Of a DNA stretch of 60,598 nt, positions 5,569 through 31,464 are shown piece by piece. Made by a program: the position numbers and the translations under genes. The first letter of the stretch is position 1. Each line of letters begins with the position of its first letter. The notes under the pieces are model-generated. The model made no database searches. It saw only the letters and a program-made list of their open reading frames with translations, and was not told the origin of the DNA. Origin of the DNA: an uncultured bacterium (GTDB lineage Bacteria > Elusimicrobiota > Elusimicrobia > Elusimicrobiales > Elusimicrobiaceae); contig CASFTM010000007.1 of assembly GCA_949297775.1 (NCBI GenBank), positions 1 through 60,598 on the forward strand, in the 5' to 3' direction.

Positions 5569-5599
5569 AAAAAAATCCCCGGGAGGAAACCCCCGGGGA
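5569..5599 (-). terminator. intrinsic terminator of the 1289-aa gene and the surface cassette
   Basis: A perfect 8-bp stem TCCCCGGG/CCCGGGGA (5599-5592 with 5583-5576, 8-nt loop) is followed on the minus strand by seven T (5575-5569). It sits 7 nt past the 5606 stop codon and closes the whole 33-kb minus-strand locus. Confidence 0.92.
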
Positions 5600-5605
5600 A
5601 AATAC

Positions 5606-8600
5606 TTATTTGTTTAAGTTTGTACCGGTACCGCGCTCGTTGGAACTTCTAAACTGCTGGGTACAAGCATTGGGGCCGTATCCGTTGTCGGGTTTGGCTT
5701 CCTTGCCGTTTACGCACACGCCGCCCACATACTTCAAGGCATTGGCTACCGGCATATTGCCTTGCAAGCGGCAGGAGTCCACCAAGTCGCTCAGCACATT
5801 GCTATAGGCGGCCTTGAACCGGCTACGGTTGTAGTCGTCAATCGTGCCGTTATAGTTTTTCTGCAAGTACTGGGGATCTTGCGAATCAGTACGCTGGAAT
5901 CTAGTTGCTTGCGCAATCGGATATAGCGGGTAGGATGTCGGGTCCCAAGCGTCTTCCACCCAGCCGCCGCTCTGCAATCTTTGCAGATATGGATCGCGCC
6001 CGGAGTCTCCGCTGCTGGTACCCGTAGCCTTCAGCGTTTGGTGTTTCAAATCCCCGTTTTGGAACTGGCTCCAGTTATACCGGCCATAGTGATACTGCGG
6101 CTCCGTCGTATGCTGGCTGGTCGTTCTGCCGCCTTCCGTGGCCGACAAGCAGCCAAAGAAGCGCCGGTCAATAATGGTATTGCCTTGCGCATCCTGTACA
6201 TACAAAGCAGGATAGTACGAGGAATCCGGCCCGATGTACGCGGCAAACGCACCCAACATATTTCTCCACGCGCGTTTATCACTCATCGCGCCTTTGGAGC
6301 GGTCAAACGAGTTATGCCCAATGGTCTTACCCAACGCGCACACTACGTTTAAAGGCACTTGGGCGTTCGGGTCCATGGCGTAATCAATGCTCATCGCGTC
6401 CACCAGCTCGGATACGGATACGGAGCCCGAGTGGACAAACCGCTTGGCCGCCTGTTGGAATTGCGGCTGGCTGTTTGCCTTGGCAATTACCTGGCCTACA
6501 TACGCCTGCACTTCAGTTTGGTCAAACACTTGGGCAGGGTTAGTGTTTTTAGCCTGATTGGGGCCGTATCCAACGTCTAAGCAGTCGTCAAACGCTGCAT
6601 TCAACGCATGGGTGCCGCCCTTCCCGTAAATATTAAATTGCGGGAATTGGAGCACATCGCTGCGTTCCTGCTGGTACAGGTTTGTAATACCGCCGGTACC
6701 GCTCATTTTTTTAGCCAAATACAAGTCAGTCATACCTGGCTCAGCCTTTACTTGGGGTGCCGGTTCCGGTTTTTGCGGAGCGGGTTCCGGCTGGCTTACA
6801 TCGGTAGAAATACCGATCGGCTCGTACCCGTCGTAATAGATACACGTTACCTGGCTGACCACTTCACCCGGTTTATCCTGGCCAGCAATTTTGGTTGCTT
6901 CTCCGTCCTGGTTTCTAAAGACGATGTTGCCCCTGTTGCAGCCGCCTTGGGTGATAGAACTGCCGTCAATCAACAGGTTGTCGCACTGGCGCACTTCCCA
7001 CGTTACAATCACGCGTTTATTTGCACCCTGTAAGGCTTTAATGTCAGGCGATGTTGCCACCACTTGGTAGGAAGCCACATTTTTGCCGCCCTGTTTGGCG
7101 CCGGGCAGATCACCGCGTTCCGTGCCCAGGTTCGTGGTTACAAACCCGTTTCCGCTCAGTTCTTTGCTCCACGAGCTGTTATACTGGCGTACATCCTGGT
7201 GCGGAACCGGATACCATTGTCCCGCCGTCGTATCGCGCGAGGTGGTAATAGCATCGGGCTGGCTGTTATCATCGCCTTGCAACGTATAGGAGATAAAGAA
7301 GCGGCTCTTCATCGTGTTATACGCGTTGTTGCCCGTCATTCCGTTCGTAAACGTCAGGTGGGCAAACGGCCAACCTTGGAATTTCTCGCCGATAGTGGCA
7401 TTGGAAACGTTGGCAAAGTAGTCGCAGCTGACGCGCACCAGCGGGTAAGCGCAGCGCGCACCGGTTACAAAGTCTTTGCCTTGCTTGCCGCCTTTGGTGG
7501 ATTTGGACAGATTTTCTTTCGCGCCCAAGGACACCGTATCGCGGATGGCGCCGCCCTCTCTAAGTACAGCCATAAATTCGCCGTACGTGGGCATCTGGCC
7601 GCCGTCCGTTACCGCGGCAATTTTCTTTACCTTGTCCACATCCTTGGCCTGCATATTGATTTCCTGTCTGCAGTCCTGGCGGGTAGGCCATTTGAAAGCG
7701 TTGCACTTGGCTATAGCATCGTCGTAGGAAGTGGCTTCAAAACCGCCGCTTCTGGCGCCATTTCTCCAATACCCGGCATATTTATACCCAGTGTTGGTAG
7801 CTGTGGAGGATTTTTTGCTGTCCATTTTTTTGCCTTTAATGGCCACGCTTTCAATAAACAGCGGTACAAAGTCTTTCCGTTCTTTAATAGCAGAGGTATT
7901 GCTGTTAAAGATCGGCCCGTTGCCGATATATCCCACCACCAGCATGTCGGGCTGTTGTTCCGCCGGGAGATCATAGTACTTGTCCAAATCGCCCGTCCGC
8001 ACGCCTACTACATAGTGCATCACGGTCCAGCCGTCTTTGGTGCTGGAAAAATCAGCCGTATAGATACCGTTTACCGCAAAGTCGTTGCAGTCCCCTGCTT
8101 CGGCAAAGGCGCCTTTGTTTTTGCCAAACAGGCCTTTGGACCATTTGCCAAACGCAAAGCCTAACCCTTCGCTCAAGCAGTCCAACCGCTGGGCAATCGG
8201 GCCCATGGTAACTTCATTTGCGTTTCCGCCGCTCCAAGGGTCTTGCACGTCTTTATTTACGCCGAAGCCATAAAATGCGCGGCAATTATCTTTAGTAAAA
8301 GGCACAGTCGGATTTGCGGCTTCCCATTTTTCTTTATCCAACCCGGCACATTCCGCCGGTTTGCCGGCGCCGGCCTTGGCGCCAAAGATCTTACCCATAC
8401 TGCCGTCATCCTGCCCGGTCACAATACAGTTAAAGATACCGCCCAGTACATTCTGCCACAGTTTGTCTTTCCACTTAATCCAATCCCAACGGCGGTTGAA
8501 TTTTGCTTCCCATTCCATCTGGGAACGGCGTTTCATCATATCCCACCACCAGGGTTCTTTGCCGTTGAAAGCAAACGTGCGTTTCAAATCGCCGTTTCCG

Positions 8601-9475
8601 CCGCCGGGGCCGAACGAACCGCCGGACAACCCGCCGATTTTACCGGGTTCAACCGGTTTCATTTGGGCGTCCATCAAGGCCTGCATAGCATTGGCTTTGG
8701 ACATAGCGTCTCTGGAGCGTCTGGCTTCTGCCGCGGCCCCCTGCCCAAAATAGCTGCGGCTGGGTTTACCGGCCGCCTGCAGCGGCTGGAGCGAAACGGG
8801 TTTCGGGCTGTTGCGCGGGCCTTCCGCACCAACTTTCTGGGCTGCTGTTTTAAGGCTGCCGCCCCACATACCTACGCCCAATTTCCCGCCGGAACGGCTG
8901 GAAAGCCCCGCCGAAGAAAGCGGGTTAATTTTGGTGGCCGCACGGCGGAAAGCCGCACGCGTGGCCGCGGGGGCATTTTGCTTGTAGATGTTGGTATTGT
9001 TTTCTTCTACCGAGGTGTCGGTAGAGGAAAAACTGTCATCCATACCGCTGCGGTCCGTATAGATTTGGGAATCGTATGAATCTTCTTCCGGTTCGTCCGA
9101 GCCAAATCCTTTAATCAAGCTCAAGGGGTCGCGCCCGGCAAGCTGTGCGATTTGTCCTTCCGGATCCTCAGTTACCGTATCAAACCCATACCGTTCGGGA
9201 TCAAAAACAGATTCCTCGCTCCCGGGGGTAATCATTGCTTCTTCATTCACCTGGCCGCTGTACTTATACAAAAACGGCAGCAGCAACAGTGCCACCAAGG
9301 CCGCGATGAAGAACGGAGCATCCCGTTTCGTTCTCTCAAAGAGAGTCTTTTTCGGTTTGCCGTCGCTCCCGATTTTGGAGGAAATACGATTAGCGAAAGA
9401 TTTAGAGGCAATTGGCTTGCTGTTCTTAATCTTATCGCTAAAGGTAAAACTTTCCTTCTTTTTTTCCTCTGGCAT
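5606..9475 (-). CDS. giant membrane-anchored Cys-rich extracytoplasmic protein, family not recognised
   Basis: A 1289-residue protein I cannot assign to a family. A basic cytoplasmic N-terminus (about 50 residues) is followed by one transmembrane segment (about 53-71) and then a very large exported region. That region has an acidic Ser/Thr-rich linker (80-160), an Ala/Gly/Arg-rich part (160-300), a Trp-rich basic patch (about 305-342), a long Cys-containing globular part, and a Pro/Glu linker (about 895-915) before a final roughly 370-residue Cys-containing domain. Many Cys suggest disulfides outside the cytoplasm. The anchor-plus-linker design is shared with the upstream neighbours. It is transcribed from its own promoter (9681-9654) through a structured leader and has an AGGAGG ribosome site 5 nt from the ATG. 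A surface adhesin or structural subunit is a guess. Confidence 0.85.
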   Translation of the reverse strand: MPEEKKKESFTFSDKIKNSKPIASKSFANRISSKIGSDGKPKKTLFERTKRDAPFFIAALVALLLLPFLYKYSGQVNEEAMITPGSEESVFDPERYGFDTVTEDPEGQIAQLAGRDPLSLIKGFGSDEPEEDSYDSQIYTDRSGMDDSFSSTDTSVEENNTNIYKQNAPAATRAAFRRAATKINPLSSAGLSSRSGGKLGVGMWGGSLKTAAQKVGAEGPRNSPKPVSLQPLQAAGKPSRSYFGQGAAAEARRSRDAMSKANAMQALMDAQMKPVEPGKIGGLSGGSFGPGGGNGDLKRTFAFNGKEPWWWDMMKRRSQMEWEAKFNRRWDWIKWKDKLWQNVLGGIFNCIVTGQDDGSMGKIFGAKAGAGKPAECAGLDKEKWEAANPTVPFTKDNCRAFYGFGVNKDVQDPWSGGNANEVTMGPIAQRLDCLSEGLGFAFGKWSKGLFGKNKGAFAEAGDCNDFAVNGIYTADFSSTKDGWTVMHYVVGVRTGDLDKYYDLPAEQQPDMLVVGYIGNGPIFNSNTSAIKERKDFVPLFIESVAIKGKKMDSKKSSTATNTGYKYAGYWRNGARSGGFEATSYDDAIAKCNAFKWPTRQDCRQEINMQAKDVDKVKKIAAVTDGGQMPTYGEFMAVLREGGAIRDTVSLGAKENLSKSTKGGKQGKDFVTGARCAYPLVRVSCDYFANVSNATIGEKFQGWPFAHLTFTNGMTGNNAYNTMKSRFFISYTLQGDDNSQPDAITTSRDTTAGQWYPVPHQDVRQYNSSWSKELSGNGFVTTNLGTERGDLPGAKQGGKNVASYQVVATSPDIKALQGANKRVIVTWEVRQCDNLLIDGSSITQGGCNRGNIVFRNQDGEATKIAGQDKPGEVVSQVTCIYYDGYEPIGISTDVSQPEPAPQKPEPAPQVKAEPGMTDLYLAKKMSGTGGITNLYQQERSDVLQFPQFNIYGKGGTHALNAAFDDCLDVGYGPNQAKNTNPAQVFDQTEVQAYVGQVIAKANSQPQFQQAAKRFVHSGSVSVSELVDAMSIDYAMDPNAQVPLNVVCALGKTIGHNSFDRSKGAMSDKRAWRNMLGAFAAYIGPDSSYYPALYVQDAQGNTIIDRRFFGCLSATEGGRTTSQHTTEPQYHYGRYNWSQFQNGDLKHQTLKATGTSSGDSGRDPYLQRLQSGGWVEDAWDPTSYPLYPIAQATRFQRTDSQDPQYLQKNYNGTIDDYNRSRFKAAYSNVLSDLVDSCRLQGNMPVANALKYVGGVCVNGKEAKPDNGYGPNACTQQFRSSNERGTGTNLNK

Positions 9476-9499
9476 AAATGCCTCCTATTAAAATAAAAC

Positions 9500-9647
9500 G
9501 GCTTGTTATGGCTTATTACAAGCCTGGGAAAAGGTATCCTTGCCGTCGGTGTACACTCTCCCTCGTACTGCTTTCCCATAATAAAGAAATTCGTTGTTCA
9601 GAGATGGTTCCCCACTCCGTAACAACTTTCTTTATCCAACCTTCCTT
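9500..9647 (-). ncRNA. structured 5' leader of the 1289-aa gene, candidate cis-regulatory RNA
   Basis: From the predicted start (about 9647), the minus-strand leader can fold into three elements. (1) A rod: 9635-9627 with 9589-9581 (9 bp), 9626-9621 with 9598-9593 (6 bp), then short inner stems closing a 4-nt loop. (2) A domain closed by 9577-9571 with 9533-9526, one nucleotide bulged. (3) A 7-bp hairpin, 9524-9518 with 9506-9500, followed by a T-rich stretch just ahead of the AGGAGG. Element 3 resembles an attenuator or ribosome-site-blocking terminator. Element 2 contains ACCGACGGCAAGG and is followed by AGG, which loosely recalls the glycine aptamer but departs from its conserved bases. 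Confidence 0.5.
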
Positions 9648-9653
9648 ATTTCT

Positions 9654-9681
9654 ATTATACAATTAAACCGGCGTTTTTCAA
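9654..9681 (-). promoter_or_regulatory. promoter of the 1289-aa gene
   Basis: TTGAAA (9681-9676), a 16-nt spacer, and TATAAT (9659-9654) on the minus strand. It is a near-consensus sigma-70-type promoter placed between the 517-aa gene stop (9690) and the 1289-aa gene, leaving a leader of about 170 nt. Confidence 0.8.
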
Positions 9682-9689
9682 GGGGCATT

Positions 9690-11243
9690 TTACCAATTGG
9701 TGTTTCCCCAATCCGTCTCCGGGAAGAAATCCCCCGCGTTTGGATCCACCGGGTTATTCCCCACGCCAACGTTAAAGGTTCCCGCCACCAGCTTGGAAAT
9801 GCCTTGCTCCGAGCATCCCCCGCCATAACAGTCCCCTTCGTCATAATCGGCCGCTTTTTTAATGGCAGCCAAGCAAGACACCTGTTCCTCGGGCGTACTC
9901 ATGGAAGCGCATTTTTGTTTCTCTGCCGCGCAGTAAGCGGCATATTGGTCATAGCGGCCCTGCAAATTATTGGTAGTGCAGGTCCCTTCCCGCCCGGCCT
10001 TAATAGCGACACCGCAGGAAGTGTGTAAATCGTTATAGGCCAATTTTACTTGTTCGCACTGGTTGCGCAATACGGAAAGGCGGTTGGTAAAATTGCCATT
10101 AATATCATCACACGTTTTCGGGAAAGAGCCGGACAACACATCAATGCCTTTTTTGGCTTCTTCCAGCTGGTTGGTCAGTTTTTCGCCGGAGGTTTCCAAC
10201 GCTTGGTTGCATTCTTCTTCTTTTTGAATACGCAATTTGATATTGTCCAAATCGCCCACCACGGCGTCCGAGGTAATGCCAATGCCGGAAAAACCGGACG
10301 AATCAAACACCCGCTTGGGCATGGAAGACCCGTCAAACCCGGCGGCGGCAAGCGTCTTTTTAAGCACGATATTCGGCGTGCGGTTGGCGGTACGCCCCGT
10401 CATCCACGCGTAATACATATCCCGTTGGGCCTTGTGCCGGCCTATATCGGTAATAGGCGCCAACTGGGAGAGCATTCCCCCTGTATCCAGTTTTTTGGAA
10501 ATACTTTGTAAATCGGGGTCGGTCAGCACGGCTTTGTCCACCAAGCGGTCCATCCAGTCCATATTGCCGGAACCGGCAATGTGCGGGTTGGCAATTTTTT
10601 TAAGAGAATCTACAGAATTGAAACCGTCCTGCGGGTTGCGCTGTACCGAGGAAGAATCCGTCCCAAAAAACACTTCCGAAGGAGTTTGGGCATTGGCTTG
10701 GGTGTTAGCCGCAGTGCCCCTTATGCGGGCCGCCGCGGCGGAAGGATCTTCGTCCCCAGTGCGCACGGTATAATGCGCCCCGGCAATTTTATCGGTGGCT
10801 TTGCCTTGCTGGGCCAAAGCGGCATTTACCGCCCGCATATTAAACAGACGTGAATCCTTTTCCTTAATCAAGCGGTCCTGCGAAGCCAAAAAACCGCCGT
10901 CTTTGCCAAACACGCCGGAAGCATCGGGGCCATCCGCTTCGCCCTGCACCCGTTTGGCGTGTTCATTCCAGGAAAGTAAGGCTTTCAAGAAAGAAAGGGA
11001 TTGGGCTTCTTCGGCGGAATAGCCCATCGCTTCCGCCAAACTGCGCAAGAACGGGATTTTTCCCACCGGGACCACTGCCGTTCCCAAGAAAAACAATAAA
11101 CACAACACCGCCGCGCCCCACGCTTTTTTGGAGCGGGCCAACGGTTTGAGGTCTGCCAATAAGGCCGCGAAGGGGGTTTTTTCTTCCTGTTCCTGCGGGT
11201 TATTGGCCTTTTGCGGCGGTTTATTGGGTTCTTGCTCTTGCAT
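9690..11243 (-). CDS. membrane-anchored coiled-coil, Cys-rich protein, family not recognised
   Basis: A 517-residue protein with no family I recognise. The charged Gln/Pro/Glu-rich cytoplasmic tail (1-40) leads into one membrane helix (about 41-60). The outer part is hydrophilic, with an Ala/Gln/Thr-rich stretch around 150-200 and a likely coiled coil (about 335-400). The last third carries ten cysteines, including a DCYGGGC motif near 478, an even number compatible with disulfide pairing outside the cytoplasm. It sits between the 497-aa and 1289-aa genes in the surface cassette and shares their single N-terminal anchor layout. The start codon follows the previous stop by about 50 nt. Confidence 0.82.
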   Translation of the reverse strand: MQEQEPNKPPQKANNPQEQEEKTPFAALLADLKPLARSKKAWGAAVLCLLFFLGTAVVPVGKIPFLRSLAEAMGYSAEEAQSLSFLKALLSWNEHAKRVQGEADGPDASGVFGKDGGFLASQDRLIKEKDSRLFNMRAVNAALAQQGKATDKIAGAHYTVRTGDEDPSAAAARIRGTAANTQANAQTPSEVFFGTDSSSVQRNPQDGFNSVDSLKKIANPHIAGSGNMDWMDRLVDKAVLTDPDLQSISKKLDTGGMLSQLAPITDIGRHKAQRDMYYAWMTGRTANRTPNIVLKKTLAAAGFDGSSMPKRVFDSSGFSGIGITSDAVVGDLDNIKLRIQKEEECNQALETSGEKLTNQLEEAKKGIDVLSGSFPKTCDDINGNFTNRLSVLRNQCEQVKLAYNDLHTSCGVAIKAGREGTCTTNNLQGRYDQYAAYCAAEKQKCASMSTPEEQVSCLAAIKKAADYDEGDCYGGGCSEQGISKLVAGTFNVGVGNNPVDPNAGDFFPETDWGNTNW

Positions 11244-11293
11244 ATTGGTTCACACACGCAGGGAACGCCCTATGGCGTTCCCTGCCGGATAAA

Positions 11294-12787
11294 TTATTTC
11301 TTGGTAGTGGAAGGCTGTTCGTTCATTAATTTTTGAACGCCGGTAGAAGCAGCTTTTTGGAAAGCCATCTGCCCTACCGTATTGGCGGCCTTCTTGGCGC
11401 CTTTCATAAATTTTTCTTGGATGGCTTTCTGTCCGGTGCTCTTCATAGCCATCAGCCCCGTAGTAATCATAGCGGTAATAGCAGCACCGCCCAATACGTA
11501 GGACATAATCGGCATTAAGTTCCCGTTGTAGTTTTTGTCGTAATGGATACCGAAGCCAATCACCGTAGCGGCATAAGCCATTACCGCGCCCAAAACGACC
11601 CATCCCCACGCGATCAAGGGCAGGCCGAACAAGCCGGATTTGCTGCCTTTGGAAATCAAGTTAAATGCAATGGGGATAGCCACCACCGTAGCGGCTACCA
11701 ACGCCAGCGTCATCCACATTAAGCGGTTGCGGGCCTTTTGCTGTTCTTCGGCAAAGTTATCCGTTTCTTCGGCCCAATCGCCAATGGCGCGGAGGTTTTT
11801 GCTGTTGGGCGACTCAAAGTCAGCCGATCCGCCGCTTCCGCCGGTCGTCACGCCGCCTTCCACCTGCATACCGCCCGAATTGCGGGTGCTCGCCAAAAAG
11901 GCGCGGGAGCCTTCGTTGGAGGAGCGGTCCCGGTTGCCGGCGGCATCGGCGGAACGTTTGGCGATATCCCGCAAGGCGTTTTTATCTTGAGGGGAACGCC
12001 GCCCGCGCCCGGAAGTGGACTGCCGCCCACCCGCCATAAAAGTGGAATTGGATGTTCTAAAGCCTTTCCCGGCATTCATAGCGGAAATAGCGTTAGAACC
12101 GCTGGGCATAGCGCCGGAAAATTGATATCCTTCCCCTCCGGAGGAAGAAGCCCCCCCTCCGCGCGTAGCCGGGGACCCCGAACCAGAACTAATTGGTCCG
12201 GAAGCCGCGGCAAAAACATTGCCGGAAGCCCGTGCCATAGAGGCCGTTCCCAGCGTCGGCCTGGCTGCACCGCCCGCACCCTCGGCACCCGCCCCGGCGG
12301 CGCCCGCCGCCACAGCGGCAGGATTTACGCCCCCCCGGGTATTTGCCCCGCGGGTGGCGGCTCCGCCGTTCGGGTCGTTCATTACCGTTCTATTGGCGCC
12401 CATTCCCAAACCGTCCGTTACGGCGCCTTCCGCCGCCGATCCGGCCGACCAATTGGCAATACTGGCCTCAGTTGCGTCCACAGAGCTGCCGGTATACACA
12501 TTCCGGGCTTCCAGTGCGGCGCGTTCTTCCGGAGAAGCCACCTGGTTAAGGGAATCCTTAATGTTGATAGACGTCAGATTTCCGTCCTTCTGCTGCAATC
12601 CTTCGTAAGAAGAAGAACGGGAAATCCCCGACAGCGTACGAATAGGGGCCTGTTTGCTGGCATAGGTATTATCCACCTCATACGAACCGTACACAGCCAG
12701 CATTCCCACGCCGGCTATTCCCGCCAGTTGGGGAATACCCAGCACGAATTTACCTGAAGTGCTTTTTAAAAAGTTCCATAAGTTCAT
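11294..12787 (-). CDS. Gly/Ser-rich membrane protein, cassette paralogue A
   Basis: A 497-residue protein with one N-terminal membrane helix (about 13-35), a 300-residue Gly/Ser/Ala/Thr-rich exported region almost free of Cys, and three membrane helices near the C-terminus (about 352-375, 387-415, 424-448) followed by a basic tail. Before the C-terminal helices it has the block RSADAAGNRDRSSNEG...RAFLAS...GGMQV...AIGDW, matched almost motif for motif by the 13083-14567 protein, so the two are paralogues. The ATG at 12787 is chosen because AGGAG precedes it by 8 nt; the longer frame uses a non-conserved extension. Function unknown. Confidence 0.83.
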   Translation of the reverse strand: MNLWNFLKSTSGKFVLGIPQLAGIAGVGMLAVYGSYEVDNTYASKQAPIRTLSGISRSSSYEGLQQKDGNLTSINIKDSLNQVASPEERAALEARNVYTGSSVDATEASIANWSAGSAAEGAVTDGLGMGANRTVMNDPNGGAATRGANTRGGVNPAAVAAGAAGAGAEGAGGAARPTLGTASMARASGNVFAAASGPISSGSGSPATRGGGASSSGGEGYQFSGAMPSGSNAISAMNAGKGFRTSNSTFMAGGRQSTSGRGRRSPQDKNALRDIAKRSADAAGNRDRSSNEGSRAFLASTRNSGGMQVEGGVTTGGSGGSADFESPNSKNLRAIGDWAEETDNFAEEQQKARNRLMWMTLALVAATVVAIPIAFNLISKGSKSGLFGLPLIAWGWVVLGAVMAYAATVIGFGIHYDKNYNGNLMPIMSYVLGGAAITAMITTGLMAMKSTGQKAIQEKFMKGAKKAANTVGQMAFQKAASTGVQKLMNEQPSTTKK

Positions 12788-12797
12788 AAGCCATCTC

Positions 12798-13070
12798 CTA
12801 CTGCAAAACGGCATCCACCGCGTTCTGCACACTTGAAGAATCCTGCTGCCGGCCCATAGCTGCCCGACGGTACACCGCCTCGCGGCGGGCCATTTCTTCT
12901 TTCCGCTGGGCTTCCAGCTGCAACGCTTCTATACGCTGCTGCAAGCGGTTTCCTTCCTGGACCAGCACCAGTCCCCAAAAGAGCCATAGCACTGCCAGAA
13001 AAATAGCAATAATGCGGTAAATACAATTTTTCCGGCTCCACGGTTGTATAATCCAATTACCGATTTGCAT
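12798..13070 (-). CDS. small single-pass membrane protein with coiled coil
   Basis: A 90-residue protein with a short N-terminus, one membrane helix (about 18-37), then a Gln/Glu/Arg/Ala-rich heptad-like stretch (38-69). The layout resembles FtsB/FtsL-type linkers, but I see no sequence match. The ATG at 13070 is preferred: GAGGTG lies 6 nt upstream, whereas the in-frame GTG at 13079 lies inside that ribosome site. It sits between the two paralogous Gly/Ser-rich genes, with about 10 nt to each neighbour, which suggests an assembly partner for them. Confidence 0.75.
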   Translation of the reverse strand: MQIGNWIIQPWSRKNCIYRIIAIFLAVLWLFWGLVLVQEGNRLQQRIEALQLEAQRKEEMARREAVYRRAAMGRQQDSSSVQNAVDAVLQ

Positions 13071-13082
13071 ACCAAACACCTC

Positions 13083-14567
13083 TTATTTTTTAGGAATAAT
13101 ACCCAGCTTTTCGCCTACAGAGGTATAAAGTTCCTTAAACGCACTGGACCAAACGAACGAGGCCCATACGCCGCCCGTTAAGATAGGCGTAATAATTTTT
13201 AAAGCCGTACTCATACCGGAGCTGCCCCACGCATTGGAAAACTGCTGGGCTTTGACAAACCCCACCACACAAAACGCCGTAGCAAGGCCGGCCATAGCCA
13301 AGGCTATAATCATTCCTACAGGGACACCAGCAAGATTAATATTCTTAATTAACGGAATGGCGATCATCGCCGCCAAAGCGACGCTTGCCGCCGTCCACAG
13401 CCATTTCGTTAAGGAGTTGCGGTCCGCCGCGCGCTGTTCCTGTTGGACATCCGCCGTAGCCGACCAATCCCCAATCGCCTGCAGATTAGCCGTATGCCCG
13501 GCGCTGAAATCCGCAGAACTTTGGCCTTGCCCGGTGGTCACGTTTTCACCGACAACCTGCATTCCGCCCGATATTTTATTGCTGGCTAAAAAGGCGCGTG
13601 CGCCTTCGTTGGCGGAGCGGTTGCGGTTGGCGGCCGCATCGGCGGAACGTTTGCGGATAAATTCCAAATCTTTGCCGTCTTTAGAACGCCGTGCATTTCC
13701 AATAACCGTATCCCAGTTATCTCCAACGCCGTTGCTATCGCCGAAACTGGCCCGGGAACGCAGGCGGACGCCTTCCTGCTGGGCAGACGCCACTTGCGCT
13801 TGGAACTGTTTCATCACATTGGCCGCGTTTTGAATATCCCCGGCGGAAGAAGTTTTGCCGCCGCTTTTTCCGCTGTTCTGAATCACAAAGGAGGAATTAA
13901 ACGCATTTCCGCCCCCGCCGCCGCGGATCCCGCGGGTAGCCGCGGAGGAACCCCAATCGCGGCTGGCACTGGCTAAGGCACCGGCTGGAGCCTCGCTCCC
14001 TTCCGCTTGTCCGCCTGCGGCACCGCCGGACGAACCGCCCCCAGCCGCAGCACCTGCCTGCGCACGGGCGGCTTTGGTTTGCACTTGGTTAATGATATTG
14101 GTCATCCCCGCCAGACTGTTTTGGGCGGCAGCCATAGGGTCGTTTTTGAGTTTTTCCTCATTGGCCCAGTTGCCCCCCATTCCCAAGCCTTCGCTTCCGC
14201 CCATTCGGTAAGCCGCCGGGGTGGATGGGTCCGCTTCCGGGTAAGAATAACCGTCATATTCTCCCGCCCGCTTTTGCGCCAACGTTAGTTTTTCGGTCAT
14301 TTCAATCGCTTTGGAAGGTTTTGCCAAAAAAGCGGACTGCGGTTCTCCGCCCGCACCATAGGTTCCGCCGGCCCCGCCAGCTACATAAACCACTTCGCCG
14401 CGGGTGCTGGGCCCGCCCAGGTTAAAAGTGGTATTGTCGGAAGGGGCATCCAAGTATTGCCAAGCGGCAATGCCCGCCACTCCGACAGCAGCCGAAAGCC
14501 CTACCGCCTGCGCGGCGGAAAGGGTCGCTTTGCCGCCCCGGCTTACCAGCCATTTAAAAATATTCAT
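13083..14567 (-). CDS. Gly/Ser-rich membrane protein, cassette paralogue B
   Basis: A 494-residue protein with the same plan as the 11294-12787 product: an N-terminal helix (about 17-37), a long Gly/Ala/Ser-rich exported segment, the shared block RSADAAANRNRSANEG...RAFLAS...GGMQV...AIGDW, and three C-terminal helices (about 389-407, 413-438, 452-477). It differs by having a Gln/Ala-rich, probably helical stretch (about 235-265). An AGGAGG ribosome site lies 6 nt before the ATG. It is the second gene of the transcription unit that starts at the promoter near 16253-16281. Function unknown; a membrane scaffold or a subunit exported with the Tad machine is possible. Confidence 0.84.
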   Translation of the reverse strand: MNIFKWLVSRGGKATLSAAQAVGLSAAVGVAGIAAWQYLDAPSDNTTFNLGGPSTRGEVVYVAGGAGGTYGAGGEPQSAFLAKPSKAIEMTEKLTLAQKRAGEYDGYSYPEADPSTPAAYRMGGSEGLGMGGNWANEEKLKNDPMAAAQNSLAGMTNIINQVQTKAARAQAGAAAGGGSSGGAAGGQAEGSEAPAGALASASRDWGSSAATRGIRGGGGGNAFNSSFVIQNSGKSGGKTSSAGDIQNAANVMKQFQAQVASAQQEGVRLRSRASFGDSNGVGDNWDTVIGNARRSKDGKDLEFIRKRSADAAANRNRSANEGARAFLASNKISGGMQVVGENVTTGQGQSSADFSAGHTANLQAIGDWSATADVQQEQRAADRNSLTKWLWTAASVALAAMIAIPLIKNINLAGVPVGMIIALAMAGLATAFCVVGFVKAQQFSNAWGSSGMSTALKIITPILTGGVWASFVWSSAFKELYTSVGEKLGIIPKK

Positions 14568-14590
14568 AAATTCCTCCTAAAAAACAAAAT

Positions 14591-16159
14591 CTACTCACAA
14601 GTCCACTGTCTGCTAACCGAATATCCGCCAGGATTACTCGTTTCTACATATTTCAATGTTTTGCCCGGCGGGCAAGAAACGGGACCCGTTGTATTGCTGT
14701 TATTTGTATTGCCACTGTTGGAAGCTCCACTGCTGGAAGAATTCCCGCCGCCGGGCGCATTTGGCGTATCCTGCAATCCCCGGCTTATCGCATTGTTGCC
14801 GGTAGAATTTCTTCCCAAGCGGGTATTTCTTGTCGCGTCTCTCTTTTCAACAGCAGCTTTGTACGCGACACTACTGGTGTCCTGGCGATAATAATCATTC
14901 ATTCCCATATTCTCATGGTCGCCGTCTATTTTGCCATTAAAAAAATCTTTCTGGCATTTTTTGCAGGAATTTCCGTCCGTCCACGCCGATCCGACGGATT
15001 TGGCTGTCCCGCCTTCTTTAGCATCCGTTCTTAATTTTGCCCAGTCAATGGGTTTGCCATTGCGGTTGTACGGCTGGGAGTTTTTAAGCATTTCAATATC
15101 GGCATCCGTTAATTCGGAAAGATTTTTATTATACAGCATATCACTCTGTTCCCGCAGCGCATCTTTAAAGGCAGAATTGCCCGCCATATTGGCCTGCCAT
15201 TGATTGACTTGCTGGTCCAATAAATTTCCCACTTGCTGCACGCCGATATCCGCCAGCCCGCTCAGAATTTGCTGGCCCAACTGTTCCCAGAAATTCTGTT
15301 CCAGTGCCTGGTTAAATTTATCCTTGTCTTCTTTGCCTTTGTCGGCGGCTTCGGCCACTTTATCATCTATATTGCCCAAGTCGGAAGAAGATACCGGCGC
15401 ATTGGGGTCAATGGCCAACCCGCCCGTTTTACTTAAATCCACTGCACCGTCGGCAAACGCATCGCTCCCGGCCACATTGGCGCCCATCATAGCTCTTTTA
15501 GCGTTGGCTCCTTTGGAATCCCGGAACCCGGCAGCCGCCCGGCTGCCTTGGGCAAACTGGGATAACGCGCGGCGGGCGTCTTGGTTTTTTAACTGCATGG
15601 GCGTTTCGGACCCTTTTTCCTGGCTTTTATATGGCGAAAAATCGCCCCGCGGCGCACCCCACGTGCCGCTCACGCCGCTTCCGCCGGCATGGCTCATGCT
15701 GGCGCTGCCCAATTTCCCTACCTGGGTAGGCGTTGCCGCCCGTCCGCCGCCATAGCCTCCATATCCGCTGTAACCGGAAGAATAAGAAGAACCGGAAGAA
15801 CTGTCTTCTCCCGCCGTTTCTTCCGACGCTTCCGCCTCGGCATTGGCGGCGTCTTCTTCCTGGCGGGCTTCTTTCTCGGCGGCGGAATAGAGCATCGTAG
15901 AATTATTTCCCTGCATATCGGGATATTTGGAAGCCAACAAATATTCTTCCGCTTCGTCATTTAAAAAAGGCATCTGGGCTAAGTCATACCCGCGGGTGTT
16001 GAAATCTTCAAACGAAGTATCTTCCGCATCGCCCAAAAACGAGGCTAGCGTCAGCAGTGCAATAAAACACACCAACACAATCGCCCCGACCGTATAGGCT
16101 TGTTTGCGGTCCATTTTATTAATTTTTTGAAATACATTCCCCGGCTTTAACTTAAACAT
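14591..16159 (-). CDS. Ser/Gly/Tyr-rich membrane-anchored protein, first gene of the cassette
   Basis: A 522-residue protein of unknown family. It has a basic N-terminus, one membrane helix (about 21-42), an acidic stretch, a Ser/Gly/Tyr-rich low-complexity run (about 118-137), and a hydrophilic exported region. It has four C-terminal-half cysteines: a CKKC pair near residue 397 and single Cys in the last 30 residues. An internal Arg/Ala/Lys block (RAAAGFRDSKGANAKRAMMGA-like) loosely recalls a similar block in the 1289-aa protein. I place the start at 16159 because AAAGGGG precedes it by 5 nt; the GTG at 16174 overlaps that site. A strong promoter lies just upstream. Confidence 0.82.
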   Translation of the reverse strand: MFKLKPGNVFQKINKMDRKQAYTVGAIVLVCFIALLTLASFLGDAEDTSFEDFNTRGYDLAQMPFLNDEAEEYLLASKYPDMQGNNSTMLYSAAEKEARQEEDAANAEAEASEETAGEDSSSGSSYSSGYSGYGGYGGGRAATPTQVGKLGSASMSHAGGSGVSGTWGAPRGDFSPYKSQEKGSETPMQLKNQDARRALSQFAQGSRAAAGFRDSKGANAKRAMMGANVAGSDAFADGAVDLSKTGGLAIDPNAPVSSSDLGNIDDKVAEAADKGKEDKDKFNQALEQNFWEQLGQQILSGLADIGVQQVGNLLDQQVNQWQANMAGNSAFKDALREQSDMLYNKNLSELTDADIEMLKNSQPYNRNGKPIDWAKLRTDAKEGGTAKSVGSAWTDGNSCKKCQKDFFNGKIDGDHENMGMNDYYRQDTSSVAYKAAVEKRDATRNTRLGRNSTGNNAISRGLQDTPNAPGGGNSSSSGASNSGNTNNSNTTGPVSCPPGKTLKYVETSNPGGYSVSRQWTCE

Positions 16160-16252: not shown

Positions 16253-16281
16253 AGTATAGGGCAAAAGCACCCAAAAATCAA
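16253..16281 (-). promoter_or_regulatory. promoter of the Gly/Ser-rich cassette
   Basis: TTGATT (16281-16276), a 17-nt spacer and TATACT (16258-16253) on the minus strand. The leader to the 16159 ATG is about 85 nt and contains a small 6-bp hairpin near 16205-16219. The cassette can therefore be transcribed separately from the pilin genes upstream. Confidence 0.78.
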
Positions 16282-16294: not shown

Positions 16295-16840
16295 TTATTT
16301 TCCTTCAGGCCGCTGGTAGGGGGAAGGACGTTCGTTATGGCCCACATATTTAATCACTTCCACCTCCCCGCCGGTTTCGCACAGAAAGGCATAGCCCTTG
16401 AGGCATTTGGCGTCCTGCTCACACACTTTATCTTTGTTATAGTTGCACAAAAAACGGATACGCGGCGGACGGGTGCGCGCCGTCAGCACCACTTTCGTCC
16501 AGGTACCGGACGTATTGATATCCATTTTAAGTTCGTTTAAACTTAAAAACTTACGCATATCCGGGTTATCAAACCCCAGATAATTTTCCACTTTGCGCTG
16601 GATGTCTTTCTTCAAAAAACGCCTGTCCCACGTGTTGGCATAATAATCCGTTACGTGCGACTGCAGCTGAAACCGCCGCGCCGCGTAATAACCGGCAATT
16701 TCCATTTTTTGGCTTAAAATCAATAACCCGAAAATTTTGATGATAAACAAAATAAAAATGACAAACAGCGGGAACAACAGCACGACTTCCGTCGTGGCCT
16801 GCCCTTTGGAAGAACGCCAGAAAAAAAGGTTGTTTTTCAT
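16295..16840 (-). CDS. TadE-like pseudopilin (second copy)
   Basis: A 181-residue protein with a class-III prepilin signature: SSKG|QATTEVVLLF, where cleavage after G13 puts Glu at mature position +5, followed by a 20-residue hydrophobic helix. The C-terminal domain contains several Cys in a short span (about 132-156). This matches TadE/TadF minor pseudopilins, which are matured by a prepilin peptidase and help Flp pilus assembly. The start overlaps the stop of the TadG-like gene by one base (TAATG), so the two are translationally coupled. It is the last gene before the cassette promoter. Confidence 0.83.
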   Translation of the reverse strand: MKNNLFFWRSSKGQATTEVVLLFPLFVIFILFIIKIFGLLILSQKMEIAGYYAARRFQLQSHVTDYYANTWDRRFLKKDIQRKVENYLGFDNPDMRKFLSLNELKMDINTSGTWTKVVLTARTRPPRIRFLCNYNKDKVCEQDAKCLKGYAFLCETGGEVEVIKYVGHNERPSPYQRPEGK

Positions 16841-17958
16841 TATGGGTCCAAGGTTACGCTGTATTTGGGCAGTGGGTTAGGCCACACGCAGTTATTGCTG
16901 GTGCGCGGGCACGACAGCACCACTGTATTGCGCACATACGGCTTGTATTTTTGTTCCAAATTGATATTAAAATAGTTCTTGGGCAATTTAAACGACTGCT
17001 TGAGCGTCACCCCCCGGCCCAATGCGCGCAGGCGGCTGCGGGAAGACGGGTCCAAATACGCAAACTGGAATAATTTTTTGCCGTTTGGCAATATTTCCGA
17101 AGCGGCAAAATCAATGTTATAAGCGCCGCCGTGTTCCCCGCTCATGCCGGAATCGGAAGCATAAAACCGCAGTTTATTAATTTCAAAGGGATCGGTGGAA
17201 AGCGTCAAATAACGCCGCAGCTGCGCGGCGCTTTGCCGGGCGCAGTCCGACTTTTTGCAATCGTTGGTGTTTAAGTAATACGCTTCGCGGAACATCACGG
17301 CGTTTTTGCTTACTTCCTTGTACACATACGACTGGCTGGCATAAATATCGCCCGTGGTGGCGTAAGTGGTCAGATAGTTTTTAATCACTTCCACCCCGTA
17401 ACGAAGCGCCGGGAAGTAATAATCGTTTACCAACGAGTTGCTCATCACCGGAACATAATCATCATCACTCGGCGCACGAGGCTGTTCTTTGGTCCAGTCC
17501 CCGCGGGAATATTCCTGGTTGTTGGAATCGTATTGGAAGCCCCAATCGTTGGACTCTGCCGGGGGCGGCGGGTTGATGCCGGTGTCGTAATCCGGCCCCA
17601 ATGCCAACACGCCGCCGCCGTGGTAAAACAGTTCAAACACGCTGATGGGCTGCTTGCCGGCCTGCTGGGCCGTTTGTTTGGGGTTTACCTTGGTGTCTTT
17701 GTAATACGCCATTACACGGTAGGGGAGCGGGCCGTTGACCATAGCCACCGCATTTAAATACGTGCTAGCGGCGGACACTTGGGAGTAAGCCGCATTATCC
17801 AACGCGAACTGCTGGCGGACCTTGGTCATAGAAACTTTGGCCATTTCAAACAACAAATAAATGACTAAAATAAAAATAGGCGCCAAAAGGACCGAAGGCA
17901 ACAATATCTGCGCCTTACGGTCTTTCAGTTTCCAAACAGCCTGGTCCACCCATCTCAT
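16840..17958 (-). CDS. TadG-like pilus-assembly protein
   Basis: A 372-residue protein. A short basic N-terminus (KDRKAQILLPSVLLAP) leads into one hydrophobic helix (to about residue 40), then about 330 residues of exported domain rich in Tyr and Asn. The start resembles TadE/TadG pseudopilins but lacks the Gly-cleavage site and the +5 Glu, so it is probably not processed like its neighbours. TadG proteins are normally membrane-anchored factors of the Tad machine. Assignment rests on position between Flp3 and TadE2 and on N-terminal similarity. Confidence 0.65.
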   Translation of the reverse strand: MRWVDQAVWKLKDRKAQILLPSVLLAPIFILVIYLLFEMAKVSMTKVRQQFALDNAAYSQVSAASTYLNAVAMVNGPLPYRVMAYYKDTKVNPKQTAQQAGKQPISVFELFYHGGGVLALGPDYDTGINPPPPAESNDWGFQYDSNNQEYSRGDWTKEQPRAPSDDDYVPVMSNSLVNDYYFPALRYGVEVIKNYLTTYATTGDIYASQSYVYKEVSKNAVMFREAYYLNTNDCKKSDCARQSAAQLRRYLTLSTDPFEINKLRFYASDSGMSGEHGGAYNIDFAASEILPNGKKLFQFAYLDPSSRSRLRALGRGVTLKQSFKLPKNYFNINLEQKYKPYVRNTVVLSCPRTSNNCVWPNPLPKYSVTLDP

Positions 17959-17961
17959 AAG

Positions 17962-18138
17962 CTAACTCGTGAGTAACTGCCCGATAAATGTAAAAAAGAA
18001 CCGTACAATATCGGTATGAAATGCCGTCAAAAAGGCGGAAAGCACCACCACAATAGAGGCCAGCATCAGCACATACTCTATCGTAGCCTGCCCGCGGCGG
18101 CAAACAAGCGGTTGCGGCTTTTCGGCGGTGCCCTTCAT
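17962..18138 (-). CDS. Flp-family pilin (third copy)
   Basis: A 58-residue prepilin: a basic leader ending RRG, then QATIEYVLML with Glu at mature +5 and adjacent Tyr, the hallmark of Flp pilins, and a hydrophobic helix to the C-terminus. I chose the ATG at 18138 because GGAGA lies 6 nt upstream; a longer frame from 18168 would overlap the regulator gene. The ATG is one base past the stop of the LuxR-type regulator, which suggests coupled expression. It is clearly shorter and more divergent than the two Flp copies at 32.8-33.2 kb. Confidence 0.8.
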   Translation of the reverse strand: MKGTAEKPQPLVCRRGQATIEYVLMLASIVVVLSAFLTAFHTDIVRFFFTFIGQLLTS

Positions 18139-18139
18139 A

Positions 18140-18832
18140 TCATTCTCCGTCGGTTTCGTCGGGAACAATGGTCCCTTCCGAAGAAATCAGCCCCTTTTCA
18201 ATAGCTTTGACCACCGCTTCCGTGCGGCTGCTTACGCCCAGTTTATGGAAAGCGCTGTTCAAATGGTTCTTAATCGTTTTTACGCTGCAATTGAGCTCTT
18301 TGGCCAGCTCTTTATTGCTCAGCCCTTTGCCCAAATAGTCCATCACTTTAATTTCGGTTTTGGTCAGCGTAGCCTGGGAAGGCATACCGGTGTTTCCCAT
18401 TTTGCGCAAACCGTGGAGTAATTTACCCATCAGCTGCTGCGGAATCATCAACCCTTCGCTGGTAAAAGTTTTAATGGAATTTACCAGTTCGGCCGCCGGC
18501 AGCATTTTGGATAAATAGCCGTTTGCACCCGCTTGAATGGCGTCCAACACGTGGGCTTCGTCCTCAAAGCTGGAAAGCATCAACACATTGACTTCCGGGC
18601 ACGCTTGGCGGATTTGGCGGGTGGCGTTAATCCCGTCCATTTTCGGCAGCTTGATATCCATCAGCACCACGTCCGGTTTCAATTTCTTGGCTTTGGCAAC
18701 CGCCTCTAATCCGTCGGCGGCTTCGCCCACCACCTCAATCCACTTTTCGCCGGTCAGTACGTCTTTAATCCCCTCCCGGAAAAGCGTTTGGTCATCGGCA
18801 ATCAGTACGGTTACTTTTTTCTTTTTGTTCAT
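18140..18832 (-). CDS. NarL/FixJ-type response regulator
   Basis: A 230-residue DNA-binding regulator. The receiver domain (1-125) has the acidic pocket D13/D14, phospho-acceptor D59 in VVLMDIKLPKMDG, and the conserved Lys in GYLSK. A LuxR-type helix-turn-helix follows (about 160-220: LTKTEIKVMDYLGKGLSNKELA). The ATG has GGGGAG 8 nt upstream. It lies after two kinase genes and one base before a pilin gene, so it probably switches pilin or cassette genes. Its binding site cannot be read here. Confidence 0.92.
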   Translation of the reverse strand: MNKKKKVTVLIADDQTLFREGIKDVLTGEKWIEVVGEAADGLEAVAKAKKLKPDVVLMDIKLPKMDGINATRQIRQACPEVNVLMLSSFEDEAHVLDAIQAGANGYLSKMLPAAELVNSIKTFTSEGLMIPQQLMGKLLHGLRKMGNTGMPSQATLTKTEIKVMDYLGKGLSNKELAKELNCSVKTIKNHLNSAFHKLGVSSRTEAVVKAIEKGLISSEGTIVPDETDGE

Positions 18833-18862
18833 TGGTATACTCCCCTAACGTTGTTAAAACAA

Positions 18863-19984
18863 TTACGAATTGACAATGGGCAGCGTAAAATTAAACGAGG
18901 CTCCCTTGCCTAATCCTTCGCTGTGCGCCCAAATCCGGCCGCCGTGATTGATTATAATATCTTTGGCGATAGAAAGCCCTAAACCCAGCCGGCCTACACG
19001 GCTTTTATCCCCCACTTGGGTAAAGCTGGTAAACAGGTTGGGCGCTTGCTCGGGGTCAATACCGTCCCCCGAGTCCGTTACGGACACTTTAGCATTTTTT
19101 TCATCTATTTTGCTAACGACAATTTCAATCGTGCCGTTGTCGGGCGTATGGCGGACGGCGTTTTCTAGAATATTGGAAATAACCTGCCGGATGCGTTTCT
19201 CGTCGGCAAACACGGGCACGGCCCCACAGCTTTCAAACGTCACGCGGATATTGCGCTTGGCGCCTTTGGCACGGAAAATTTCGGCAGTTTTCTTTAAGCT
19301 TTCGGTCAATTCAAAGCGTGTTTTTTCAATACGCAGCTTGCCCTTTTCAATAGCGGCCCAGTCCACCAAGTCTTTAATCAAATGTTCAATCTGACTGATA
19401 GACTCGTCCATAAACATCATCTTTTTTTGCTGGTCCTCATCCGGGGTCAGCTTTTTTTTGAGCATATCAAAGCTCATCTTAAGCGTCATCAGCGAGTTGG
19501 ACAAGTCGTGCGACACGATGGAAAAGAATTTGGACTTCATATTATTTAACCGGTCCAAATCCTCATTGCGGGTTTTCAGCTGGGCCAGCAGCTCTTTGTT
19601 GCTCTGTTCCAAGAAATACTTATCCAAAGCGCGATTAATGGTGCGCTTTAAATAATCAAAATCCACCGGCTTCATTAAGAAATCATAAACCGATTCCTGC
19701 ATAGCTTCCATAATAGCGTTTAAAGAAGCATACGCGGTAATCATAATAATTTGGGTATCTTCGTTAAACGAACGGATCTTGCGGATTAAGTCCAGCCCTG
19801 TTTCGCCGGGAAGGTTGTAATCCATCAAAATCACATTAAAAAATTCGTTAGCGCAAATATCCAAACATTCCGCCGCATCGCCGGCTTGATAGACTTTATA
19901 GCCCTCAATTTCCAACAAATCCACCAGCGTTTCGCGCAGGTTGTTGTCATCATCCACCACTAAGATTTTAACTTGCTTCTCCAT
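18863..19984 (-). CDS. receiver-histidine kinase hybrid (soluble)
   Basis: A 373-residue cytoplasmic protein: a receiver domain (5-115, phospho-acceptor D55 in VILMDYNLPG), a coiled linker (120-150), an H-box with H159 (IVSHDLSNSL), and a C-terminal HATPase with DSGDGI and GLGLS motifs. It has no membrane segment, so it is probably driven through its receiver domain by the upstream kinase and passes phosphate on to the LuxR-type regulator. Its start overlaps the kinase stop by 17 nt, with GGAG 9 nt upstream, which indicates coupled translation. Confidence 0.88.
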   Translation of the reverse strand: MEKQVKILVVDDDNNLRETLVDLLEIEGYKVYQAGDAAECLDICANEFFNVILMDYNLPGETGLDLIRKIRSFNEDTQIIMITAYASLNAIMEAMQESVYDFLMKPVDFDYLKRTINRALDKYFLEQSNKELLAQLKTRNEDLDRLNNMKSKFFSIVSHDLSNSLMTLKMSFDMLKKKLTPDEDQQKKMMFMDESISQIEHLIKDLVDWAAIEKGKLRIEKTRFELTESLKKTAEIFRAKGAKRNIRVTFESCGAVPVFADEKRIRQVISNILENAVRHTPDNGTIEIVVSKIDEKNAKVSVTDSGDGIDPEQAPNLFTSFTQVGDKSRVGRLGLGLSIAKDIIINHGGRIWAHSEGLGKGASFNFTLPIVNS

Positions 19985-22014: not shown

Positions 22015-22968
22015 TTAGCAGCTGCCGGCAGGTGCGGCGGCTTGCCCTTGCGCTTTAGAAGCGTTCGGGTTCAAAAACGAAAAACCTTCAATTTCCGAAG
22101 CCGTCCCAAAATCCAACTTTACTTTGCCTTCCCACAAGAAAGTCGGGGACGCATTCACACCGTATTCTTTGCCGTATTTGGCTTCTTCTTTTAAAAGTTC
22201 CACGCCTTCTTCGTCAAATTTCTTCATAATTTTTTTGCTGCTAATACCAGCTTCTTCCATAGCTTTATCCCAGCGGCTGGAGCGGTAATCTTTATTGCGG
22301 ATTTCCAAATATTTCCAGAATTTTTTGGGATAGTATTTGGCAATCAACAGCTGGCGGATGTCTTCTTCCCATTCGGCGGAACCATGCAGACTGGAGAAGC
22401 CTTTTTCCTCATCATAATTGACCACATAGCGGACTTTAATTTCTTTATCCGCCGGCAGTTTGCCGTCTTTCTGCGCCTGGATAACCAAATTTTCAGCCAT
22501 CGCGCCATAAGGGCACTGGGACATTACAAAAATTTCCATCACGCCCGGTTTAGCGGTTTTGTCGGAATATACACCGGAACGGGTTTGTTTCGGCAAAATG
22601 ATAAAGTCATCATTTTCCTGGGCATAACCGTATTGGATGTGTTTTTCCAGCTTGGTGCGGATGGCATCCGTTTTTTTGACCAAGTAAAGCGGCAAAAAGC
22701 TGTAATCCAAGTTAGCCAGCTTCGGGTCAGCCGATACGTCTTTATAAGAAACCTTTGTAACGACCGGTTCCACATTTAAAAACTGTGCAATCCCCGACGT
22801 TAACTGCGGGTCTTCTTTTCCGGCTTCGTATTCATCGGATTCCACAATCACAATTTCCGCTTTTGTTTTAGCGGGAGCCTTGGCCTTAGCAGCCGCTTTT
22901 TTGGCAGGAGCCGCAAAAGCAAACCCCGCCAAAGCACAAATGACTAAAATACTAATTAATTTTTTCAT
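22015..22968 (-). CDS. periplasmic thioredoxin-fold protein with single-Cys CPYG motif
   Basis: A 317-residue secreted protein with a signal peptide (1-19), a Lys/Ala-rich segment, an N-terminal domain (about 45-140), and a thioredoxin/DsbA-like domain from about 145. The motif position reads MSQCPYG rather than CxxC, so it has one active-site Cys. A cis-Pro-like ASPTFLWEG follows near 275, and the protein ends in a lone Cys (AGSC). This would suit a monothiol binding or disulfide-isomerase-like role more than an oxidase; the C-terminal Cys might act as partner. It lies within the Tad run, upstream of the Cys-rich cassette that could be its client. Confidence 0.75.
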   Translation of the reverse strand: MKKLISILVICALAGFAFAAPAKKAAAKAKAPAKTKAEIVIVESDEYEAGKEDPQLTSGIAQFLNVEPVVTKVSYKDVSADPKLANLDYSFLPLYLVKKTDAIRTKLEKHIQYGYAQENDDFIILPKQTRSGVYSDKTAKPGVMEIFVMSQCPYGAMAENLVIQAQKDGKLPADKEIKVRYVVNYDEEKGFSSLHGSAEWEEDIRQLLIAKYYPKKFWKYLEIRNKDYRSSRWDKAMEEAGISSKKIMKKFDEEGVELLKEEAKYGKEYGVNASPTFLWEGKVKLDFGTASEIEGFSFLNPNASKAQGQAAAPAGSC

Positions 22969-24386: not shown

Positions 24387-24396
24387 ACGGTTTCTC

Positions 24397-25827: not shown

Positions 25828-25838
25828 AAGTTTATCCT

Positions 25839-26729: not shown

Positions 26730-26731
26730 AT

Positions 26732-28357: not shown

Positions 28358-28378
28358 ATATATCCTTCAGTTACGCCA

Positions 28379-30697: not shown

Positions 30698-30703
30698 AAA
30701 TAA

Positions 30704-31450: not shown

Positions 31451-31464
31451 ATTTGTCCTGTACG

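What the first reader, a model, noticed from the sequence alone, without database searches (positions are those of the whole stretch)
5606..16159. Unrecognised six-gene surface cassette appended to a Tad pilus locus
Six consecutive minus-strand genes encode proteins of 522, 494, 90, 497, 517 and 1289 residues. All have one N-terminal membrane helix. Five have long Gly/Ser/Ala- or Cys-rich exported regions, and two of those also have three C-terminal helices. None matches a family I know. They follow Flp, TadG-like and TadE-like genes and are closed by a strong terminator. The arrangement suggests a dedicated envelope complex or cargo of the Tad machine.
Basis: partly seen in the sequence, partly recalled or inferred. 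Interest (0 to 1): 0.85.

Follow-up and report, generated by a model that had tools for sequence, protein, structure and literature searches.

The report
Tad-linked envelope gene cassette in Elusimicrobia
Six neighbouring genes of a gut bacterium, matching no known protein family, turn out to be a conserved set of inner-membrane-anchored proteins, most of them sharing one building block, that sits at the end of the Tad adhesion-pilus gene locus in distant members of this bacterial class, so this pilus machine probably carries an undescribed extra part.

Summary
The six genes are real, at the stated coordinates and sizes, and match nothing in Pfam, NCBIfam or the PDB beyond sub-threshold noise. 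They are not six unrelated genes: 494 and 497 are tandem paralogues, and profile-profile comparison with column-shuffled controls links five of the six (not the 90-residue one) through a shared two-motif module. The cassette recurs, in conserved order, in nearly all of the family (52 of 53 Elusimicrobiaceae genomes have at least one member), in a sister family, and in other orders of class Elusimicrobia; no member was detected elsewhere in the phylum or in the one cross-phylum scan. In the window's genus and in at least seven loci of distant lineages it lies on the same strand downstream of the whole tad core, the same two-component genes and TadG-TadE, so Tad linkage is probably ancestral. 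It has been broken in one sister family (cassette beside dnaX-recR), in E. minutum and in a few others. The proteins lack a prepilin cleavage motif, and two (three in the sister family) are multi-pass. I favour an accessory inner-membrane-anchored complex of the Tad machine over a pilus-tip cargo. New extra: F, the last gene, has its own promoter and a covarying, single-copy leader hairpin. Function is inferred, untested.

The parts
14591..16159 (-). Gene A (522 aa): N-in single-TM anchor (residues 24-42), acidic and Gly/Ser-rich exported region, shared module (motif 1 about 140-169, motif 2 about 196-238)
13083..14567 (-). Gene B (494 aa): N-terminal TM, Ala/Gly-rich loop, motif 2 about 297-326, further C-terminal TM helices; tandem paralogue of D
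   Evidence: (B-D hhalign E 2.8e-51)
12798..13070 (-). Gene C (90 aa): one TM (20-38) plus short charged helix; larger (about 170-220 aa) counterpart in genus g2; no shared module detected
11294..12787 (-). Gene D (497 aa): N-terminal TM, exported loop with motif 1 (172-198) and motif 2 (about 266-293), three C-terminal TM helices; paralogue of B
9690..11243 (-). Gene E (517 aa): TM 43-61, disordered stretch, motif 2 (about 275-312), Cys-rich helical domain 325-463 (pLDDT about 90) with no PDB fold match; relatives in family f2 add C-terminal TM helices
9654..9681 (-). Promoter of F: TTGAAA-16-TATAAT (11/12); a match of 10/12 or better is found in the E-F gap of 26 of 54 relatives against 5.5% of random windows
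9593..9626 (-). Covarying RNA hairpin in the F leader (14 pairs, 5 with changes on both sides, 99.7% of cells paired); one copy per genome in 25 of 41 genus genomes, those that could be placed lying just upstream of F
5606..9475 (-). Gene F (1289 aa): strongly conserved cytoplasmic N-terminus and TM (52-70), motif 1 (176-205), motif 2 (about 246-275), WWWD motif at 309-312, fast-evolving Cys-containing C-terminal part; domain 918-1278 predicted with high confidence, no PDB match
5576..5599 (-). Intrinsic terminator after F
16253..16281 (-). Promoter position upstream of A: TTGATT-17-TATACT here; TTGACA-17-TATACT or close to it in 37 of 37 relatives
16295..18168 (-). Flp-like pilin, TadG-like and TadE-like genes that precede the cassette; Flp and TadE2 carry a prepilin-type motif
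18140..21857 (-). LuxR-type response regulator, receiver-kinase and histidine kinase kept between tad core and cassette in distant lineages
22015..22968 (-). DsbA-like (CPYG) gene in the same locus; possible source of disulphides for E and F (inference)
   Evidence: (DSBA E 0.01)
23277..32749 (-). tad core: HAMP protein, TPR protein, TadC, TadB, CpaF with N-terminal ParA-like domain, secretin, RcpC, TadE1

Best explanation
The cassette encodes a lineage-specific accessory complex of the Tad pilus machine of class Elusimicrobia. Shown by sequence: each subunit is anchored by an N-terminal helix (N-inside by charge), carries a flexible, mostly low-complexity exported region, and five of six share a two-motif module, so most of the set probably arose by duplication of one ancestral gene. 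Shown: the set stays together in order and is placed at the 3' end of the tad superlocus in distant lineages. Inferred: the subunits hetero-oligomerise through the shared module; B, D and (in relatives) E form a multi-pass inner-membrane platform; A, E and F extend through the periplasm around or beside the RcpC/secretin conduit; and F, with a conserved base and a fast-evolving Cys-bearing end and its own regulated expression, is the part that varies with the environment. The complex would help position, gate or functionalise the Tad pilus rather than be a pilus subunit.
For: Synteny: in 30 of 36 genus genomes F lies 20.2-22.9 kb downstream of rcpC on the same strand; linkage within 45 kb on the same strand also holds for 4 other family members and 6 genomes of another order, with the intervening gene order tad core - kinase/regulators - TadG - TadE - cassette preserved. 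Co-occurrence in the class: 84 genomes with both, 7 Tad only, 1 cassette only, 4 neither (tallied by hand; not corrected for phylogeny). Shared module: hhalign A0-A 2e-6, A-B 9e-7, B-D 2e-39 in f2; D-E 2.4e-6 in g2; A-D 1.5e-6 and A-F 1e-4 in the genus; the best scores are two to three times the best column-shuffled control. Prepilin motif absent from the first helix of nearly all members, present in Flp, TadE1 and TadE2. C-terminal divergence of F against near-invariant N-terminus. Separate promoter and covarying leader for F.
Against: In family f2 and in E. minutum the cassette (or its split parts) is unlinked from tad, and 7 class genomes have Tad without a detected cassette. Co-occurrence is weak evidence because Tad is nearly universal in the class. 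Topology is from hydropathy and charge only; no interaction, localisation or expression data exist. Some module links are weak (A-E, B-F near the controls) and D-F and E-F were not significant directly; C shows no module.
Confidence: 0.5

Rival explanations
1. Tip or cargo: F (and perhaps A and E) are large surface proteins displayed or exported through the Tad secretin, analogous to the TadEFG/Kil tip complexes that expose variable domains.
For: F has a conserved base and a fast-evolving C-terminal part with beta-rich segments; the genes follow TadG and TadE, which are tip-type minor pilins in the Kil study (PMC12075869); long Gly/Ser linkers could span the periplasm (inference).
Against: Minor pilins need prepilin-peptidase processing (PMC12075869) and members lack the [GA]xxxxE motif; B and D, and f2 E, are multi-pass membrane proteins, which does not fit a pilin; no fold match to any solved structure.
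Confidence: 0.22
2. An independent envelope complex (for example a periplasmic or surface scaffold) that merely sits beside tad for historical reasons or shared regulation.
For: Intact cassettes exist beside dnaX-recR in family f2 and beside unrelated genes in G019, G103 and G042; the cassette has its own conserved promoters; the Tad marker is present without a detected cassette in 7 class genomes.
Against: The same tad-regulator-TadG-TadE-cassette order is kept between orders of the class, although neighbours on the other side of the cassette have changed repeatedly; all but one cassette genome has a Tad marker.
Confidence: 0.23
3. The shared module is a convergent low-complexity artefact and the proteins are unrelated except B and D (this concerns the kinship claim, not the function).
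For: The proteins are Gly/Ala/Ser-rich, which can inflate profile scores; several pairs are not significant.
Against: Column-shuffled profiles of the same composition score far lower (for example 56.3 against 20.1, 55.6 against 19.8, 52.9 against 17.0), and the aligned stretches fall on the same two motifs in the same order.
Confidence: 0.12

Closest known systems
Tad (tight adherence) pilus system, type IVc pili
   Same: Complete tad core (secretin, RcpC, CpaF, TadB, TadC, TadE-like, TadG-like, Flp) upstream on the same strand
   Different: No described Tad locus known to me carries a module-sharing, multi-subunit anchored cassette after TadG/TadE; searches of Pfam, NCBIfam, PHROGs and PDB found no counterpart
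Kil Tad pilus tip complexes of Myxococcus xanthus (KilK/KilO adapters, Tip1-4; PMC12075869)
   Same: Extra genes functionalising a Tad pilus, exposing variable domains
   Different: Kil tips are prepilin-processed minor pilins; cassette members lack the motif and two are multi-pass
RcpC/CpaB periplasmic conduit of Tad (PMC12307814, abstract)
   Same: Inner-membrane-linked protein acting in the periplasm on the pilus path
   Different: RcpC itself is present separately in the locus (PF16976, E 7.6e-18); cassette members show no SAF/RcpC domain
VirB2/TrbC and VirB6/TrbL conjugation membrane proteins
   Same: Hydrophobic helices at the C-terminus of B/D
   Different: Only stray sub-threshold hits in single members (TrbL 0.01, TrbC 0.14)

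Membership tests
Type IVc (Flp/TadE/TadG) pilins or minor pilins | Prepilin peptidase site ([GA]xxxxE) at the start of the N-terminal helix | tested here: not met
   0-2 members per family (of 8-62) have it, against Flp, TadE1, TadE2 which do; the TadG-like protein of the window also lacks it
Type IVc (Flp/TadE/TadG) pilins or minor pilins | Single N-terminal hydrophobic helix as the only membrane segment | tested here: not met
   Met by A, C, E, F of the window; not met by B and D, nor by E of family f2
Tad system accessory genes | Conserved placement in the tad locus across lineages | tested here: met
   30 of 36 genus genomes, 4 other family members and 6 of f7/f8 linked; 0 of 15 in f2; gene order
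Tad system accessory genes | Required for or physically part of the Tad machine | not testable with these tools
   needs genetics, pull-down or tomography
Kil-type tip complexes | KilN-like fold with alpha1N bundle docking on the pilus | tested here: inconclusive
   E and F models show no fold match at E 0.001 or better, but Kil proteins were not compared one by one
Shared-module paralogue family (defined here) | Motif 1 (GxL...M..GG) followed by helix motif 2 ending in AFxG-like residues, after an N-terminal anchor | tested here: met
   A, B, D, E, F linked through a network of significant pairs; not met by C
VirB2/TrbC or VirB6/TrbL | Profile match above curated cut-off | tested here: not met

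The most novel reading that the evidence does not exclude
A previously undescribed cell-envelope machine built from one gene duplicated into five or six module-sharing, differently topologised subunits, ancestral to several orders of Elusimicrobia and coupled to a Tad pilus, with the variable effector or adhesin subunit F controlled by its own RNA leader.
Probability: 0.35. Interest if true: 0.8.

Novelty: new variant of a known kind. Interest (0 to 1): 0.62.

Why it matters
Tad pili are among the most widespread bacterial adhesion and predation machines, and their accessory parts are poorly mapped. A multi-subunit set conserved over much of a bacterial class, matching nothing in curated family libraries, points to a lineage-specific Tad variant in bacteria of poultry, ruminant and other animal guts as well as in relatives with larger genomes. 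It gives concrete genes to test and shows how a machine part may be built by repeated duplication of a single anchored protein. The single-copy RNA leader adds a testable control point.

Tried and rejected
Family libraries: Pfam, NCBIfam and PHROGs gave only sub-threshold or isolated noise; the SDF hit of one g2 D protein (1.6e-6, exactly at cut-off) falls in the hydrophobic C-terminal segment of a single member and was rejected. PDB by sequence: nothing. Fold searches of E and F: no match at E 0.001 or better in PDB, and none for F in the viral library. I first thought that tad adjacency was a recent gut-genus feature, because f2 lacked it; rejected when f2-based profiles found the same tad-linked array in f7 and in G133. 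Direct genus-level profiles did not link B-E, D-E or E-F; only basal-lineage profiles linked D-E, E-F never. Rfam found nothing in the window or in the F leader. Literature searches gave no description of this cassette (open-access papers only).

Full report
WHAT IS THERE. The window is contig C7 of a 1.69-Mb genome, 97% complete. Its relatives are gut-derived Elusimicrobiaceae metagenome-assembled genomes, among them Candidatus Avelusimicrobium and UBA1436. The six minus-strand genes are present exactly as described: A 522, B 494, C 90, D 497, E 517 and F 1289 residues, with the stated terminator after F. Upstream on the same strand lie a TadE-like gene, a TadG-like gene, an Flp-like pilin, three two-component genes, a DsbA-like gene and a complete tad core including secretin, RcpC, a CpaF with an N-terminal ParA-like domain, TadB and TadC. 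None of the six matches a curated family above its cut-off.

NOT SIX UNRELATED GENES. B and D are tandem paralogues (44% identity over 159 residues; full-length profile match E 2.8e-51). Profile-profile comparisons with column-shuffled controls then connect most of the set: within the genus A-D (1.5e-6) and A-F (1e-4); in the sister genus g2 D-E (2.4e-6, score 55.6 against a best control of 19.8), A-F (36.6 against 18.7) and A-E (29.8 against 20.0); in family f2 A0-A (2e-6), A-B (9e-7), B-D (2e-39), A0-F (42.6 against 19.6) and A-D (34.8 against 19.5). The aligned stretches are the same two motifs in the same order: a short GxL...M..GG stretch, then a helix ending near an AFxG-like sequence. 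E-F and several other pairs were not significant, so relatedness of the whole set rests on a network, and C is not linked to the module. I infer that most of the cassette arose by duplication of one anchored gene.

DISTRIBUTION. Searches were run on 199 genomes of the phylum. With the window F protein, F is found in 47 genomes of the family; with the E profile, E is found in 62 genomes including 14 of a sister family f2; profiles rebuilt from f2 and deeper members reach families f7 and f8 of the class. Taken together, 52 of 53 genomes of the family have at least one member (G010 is the exception). No member was found in the remaining families of the phylum. A scan of 84,980 prokaryote species with the family-level F profile confirmed only Elusimicrobiota records, as far as their titles tell; that profile is less sensitive than the later ones, so more distant relatives outside the phylum are not excluded.

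GENE ORDER. In the genus the order A-B-C-D-E-F is kept in about 30 species; a subgroup places a small gene after D instead. F lies 20.2 to 22.9 kb downstream of rcpC on the same strand in 30 of 36 genomes; four others are on separate contigs and two (G019, G103) are rearranged. In at least seven loci of other lineages (G133 of the same family, and G163, G083, G111, G149, G188, G198 of family f7) the same superlocus is seen: tad core, kinase and regulators, TadG and/or TadE, then A and B/D-like genes and, where the contig allows, E and F. In f2 the array A0-A-B-D-E-F sits beside dnaX-recR instead, and in E. minutum (G034, identified by its 1,643,562-bp single contig, from my own knowledge of that genome) E and F are at separate places and both away from rcpC. 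The simplest reading is ancestral linkage with later detachment. In the class, 84 genomes have both Tad marker and cassette, 7 Tad only, 1 cassette only, 4 neither (Fisher p 5e-4); this is not corrected for shared ancestry and Tad is nearly universal, so it is supporting evidence only.

ARCHITECTURE AND MECHANISM. By hydropathy and charge, members have an N-inside anchor and export the rest; B, D and the f2 version of E add C-terminal helices. The prepilin motif is missing from the first helix in nearly all members and present in the Flp and TadE genes next door, so they are not ordinary pilins or minor pilins. Predicted structures: E has one confident Cys-rich helical domain (325-463), and F has several beta-containing segments and a confident C-terminal domain (918-1278); neither has a PDB match at E 0.001 or better. 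F is most conserved at its cytoplasmic N-terminus and TM and diverges strongly after residue 370. I therefore favour an anchored accessory complex of the Tad machine (0.5), over a displayed tip or cargo (0.22) and an independent complex (0.23). Topology, assembly and coupling to Tad are inferences.

CONTROL ELEMENTS. The TadE2-A gap holds TTGACA-17-TATACT, or a close variant, in all 37 relatives examined; the window copy has a weakened -35 box. The E-F gap holds a TTGAAA-16-TATAAT type promoter in 26 of 54 relatives, against 5.5% of random windows, followed by a hairpin with five pairs changed on both sides, 99.7% of cells paired and slid controls at 52% or less. A covariance model finds it once per genome in 25 of 41 genus genomes, with a second partial match only at a contig end in G135; every copy whose cassette position is known lies just upstream of F, including the detached cassette of G019. 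It is unknown to Rfam. Other subgroups have different sequences in this gap.

COMPARISON WITH KNOWN SYSTEMS. It sits with, and probably works with, a Tad pilus, but its members are not Tad pilins by the tested motif. The nearest functional precedent is the Kil Tad pilus, whose interchangeable tips are prepilin-processed minor pilins (PMC12075869); that defining feature is not met here. I rate it a new variant of a known kind: a Tad system with an undescribed, lineage-specific, module-sharing envelope complex.

Noticed in passing
window 9593-9626 (-), with promoter at 9654-9681: Single-copy covarying RNA hairpin and promoter directly upstream of F; no Rfam match. Other subgroups of the genus have different sequences in the same gap, some hairpin-like.
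   Followed up: yes
L168:11264-12973 (-); genes of similar size in G083, G149, G198: In family f7 an FtsH-like AAA/M41 protease gene (Pfam AAA and Peptidase_M41) sits between TadE and gene A; genes of similar size at the same place in other f7 loci were not tested.
   Followed up: partly
window 3765-5486 (-): A TPR protein follows the cassette terminator and stays between F and ksgA in most close relatives, and with E in E. minutum (L157); it may belong to the system in this family.
   Followed up: partly
window 22015-22968 (-): DsbA-like gene with a CPYG motif kept between the HAMP protein and the histidine kinase in close relatives; a plausible disulphide supplier for E and F.
   Followed up: no
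L158 (G095), L159 (G013), L127, L136, L137, L139: Some genus g2 and termite-gut genomes have F alone, or A-D-E away from F: the cassette has been split more than once.
   Followed up: partly
window 34275-38990 (-): 1571-residue protein with FlgD-Ig repeats, followed by a porin-like protein, upstream of the tad core; large surface protein not examined.
   Followed up: no
window 60160-60597 (-): Ankyrin-repeat-like open frame running off the window end.
   Followed up: no
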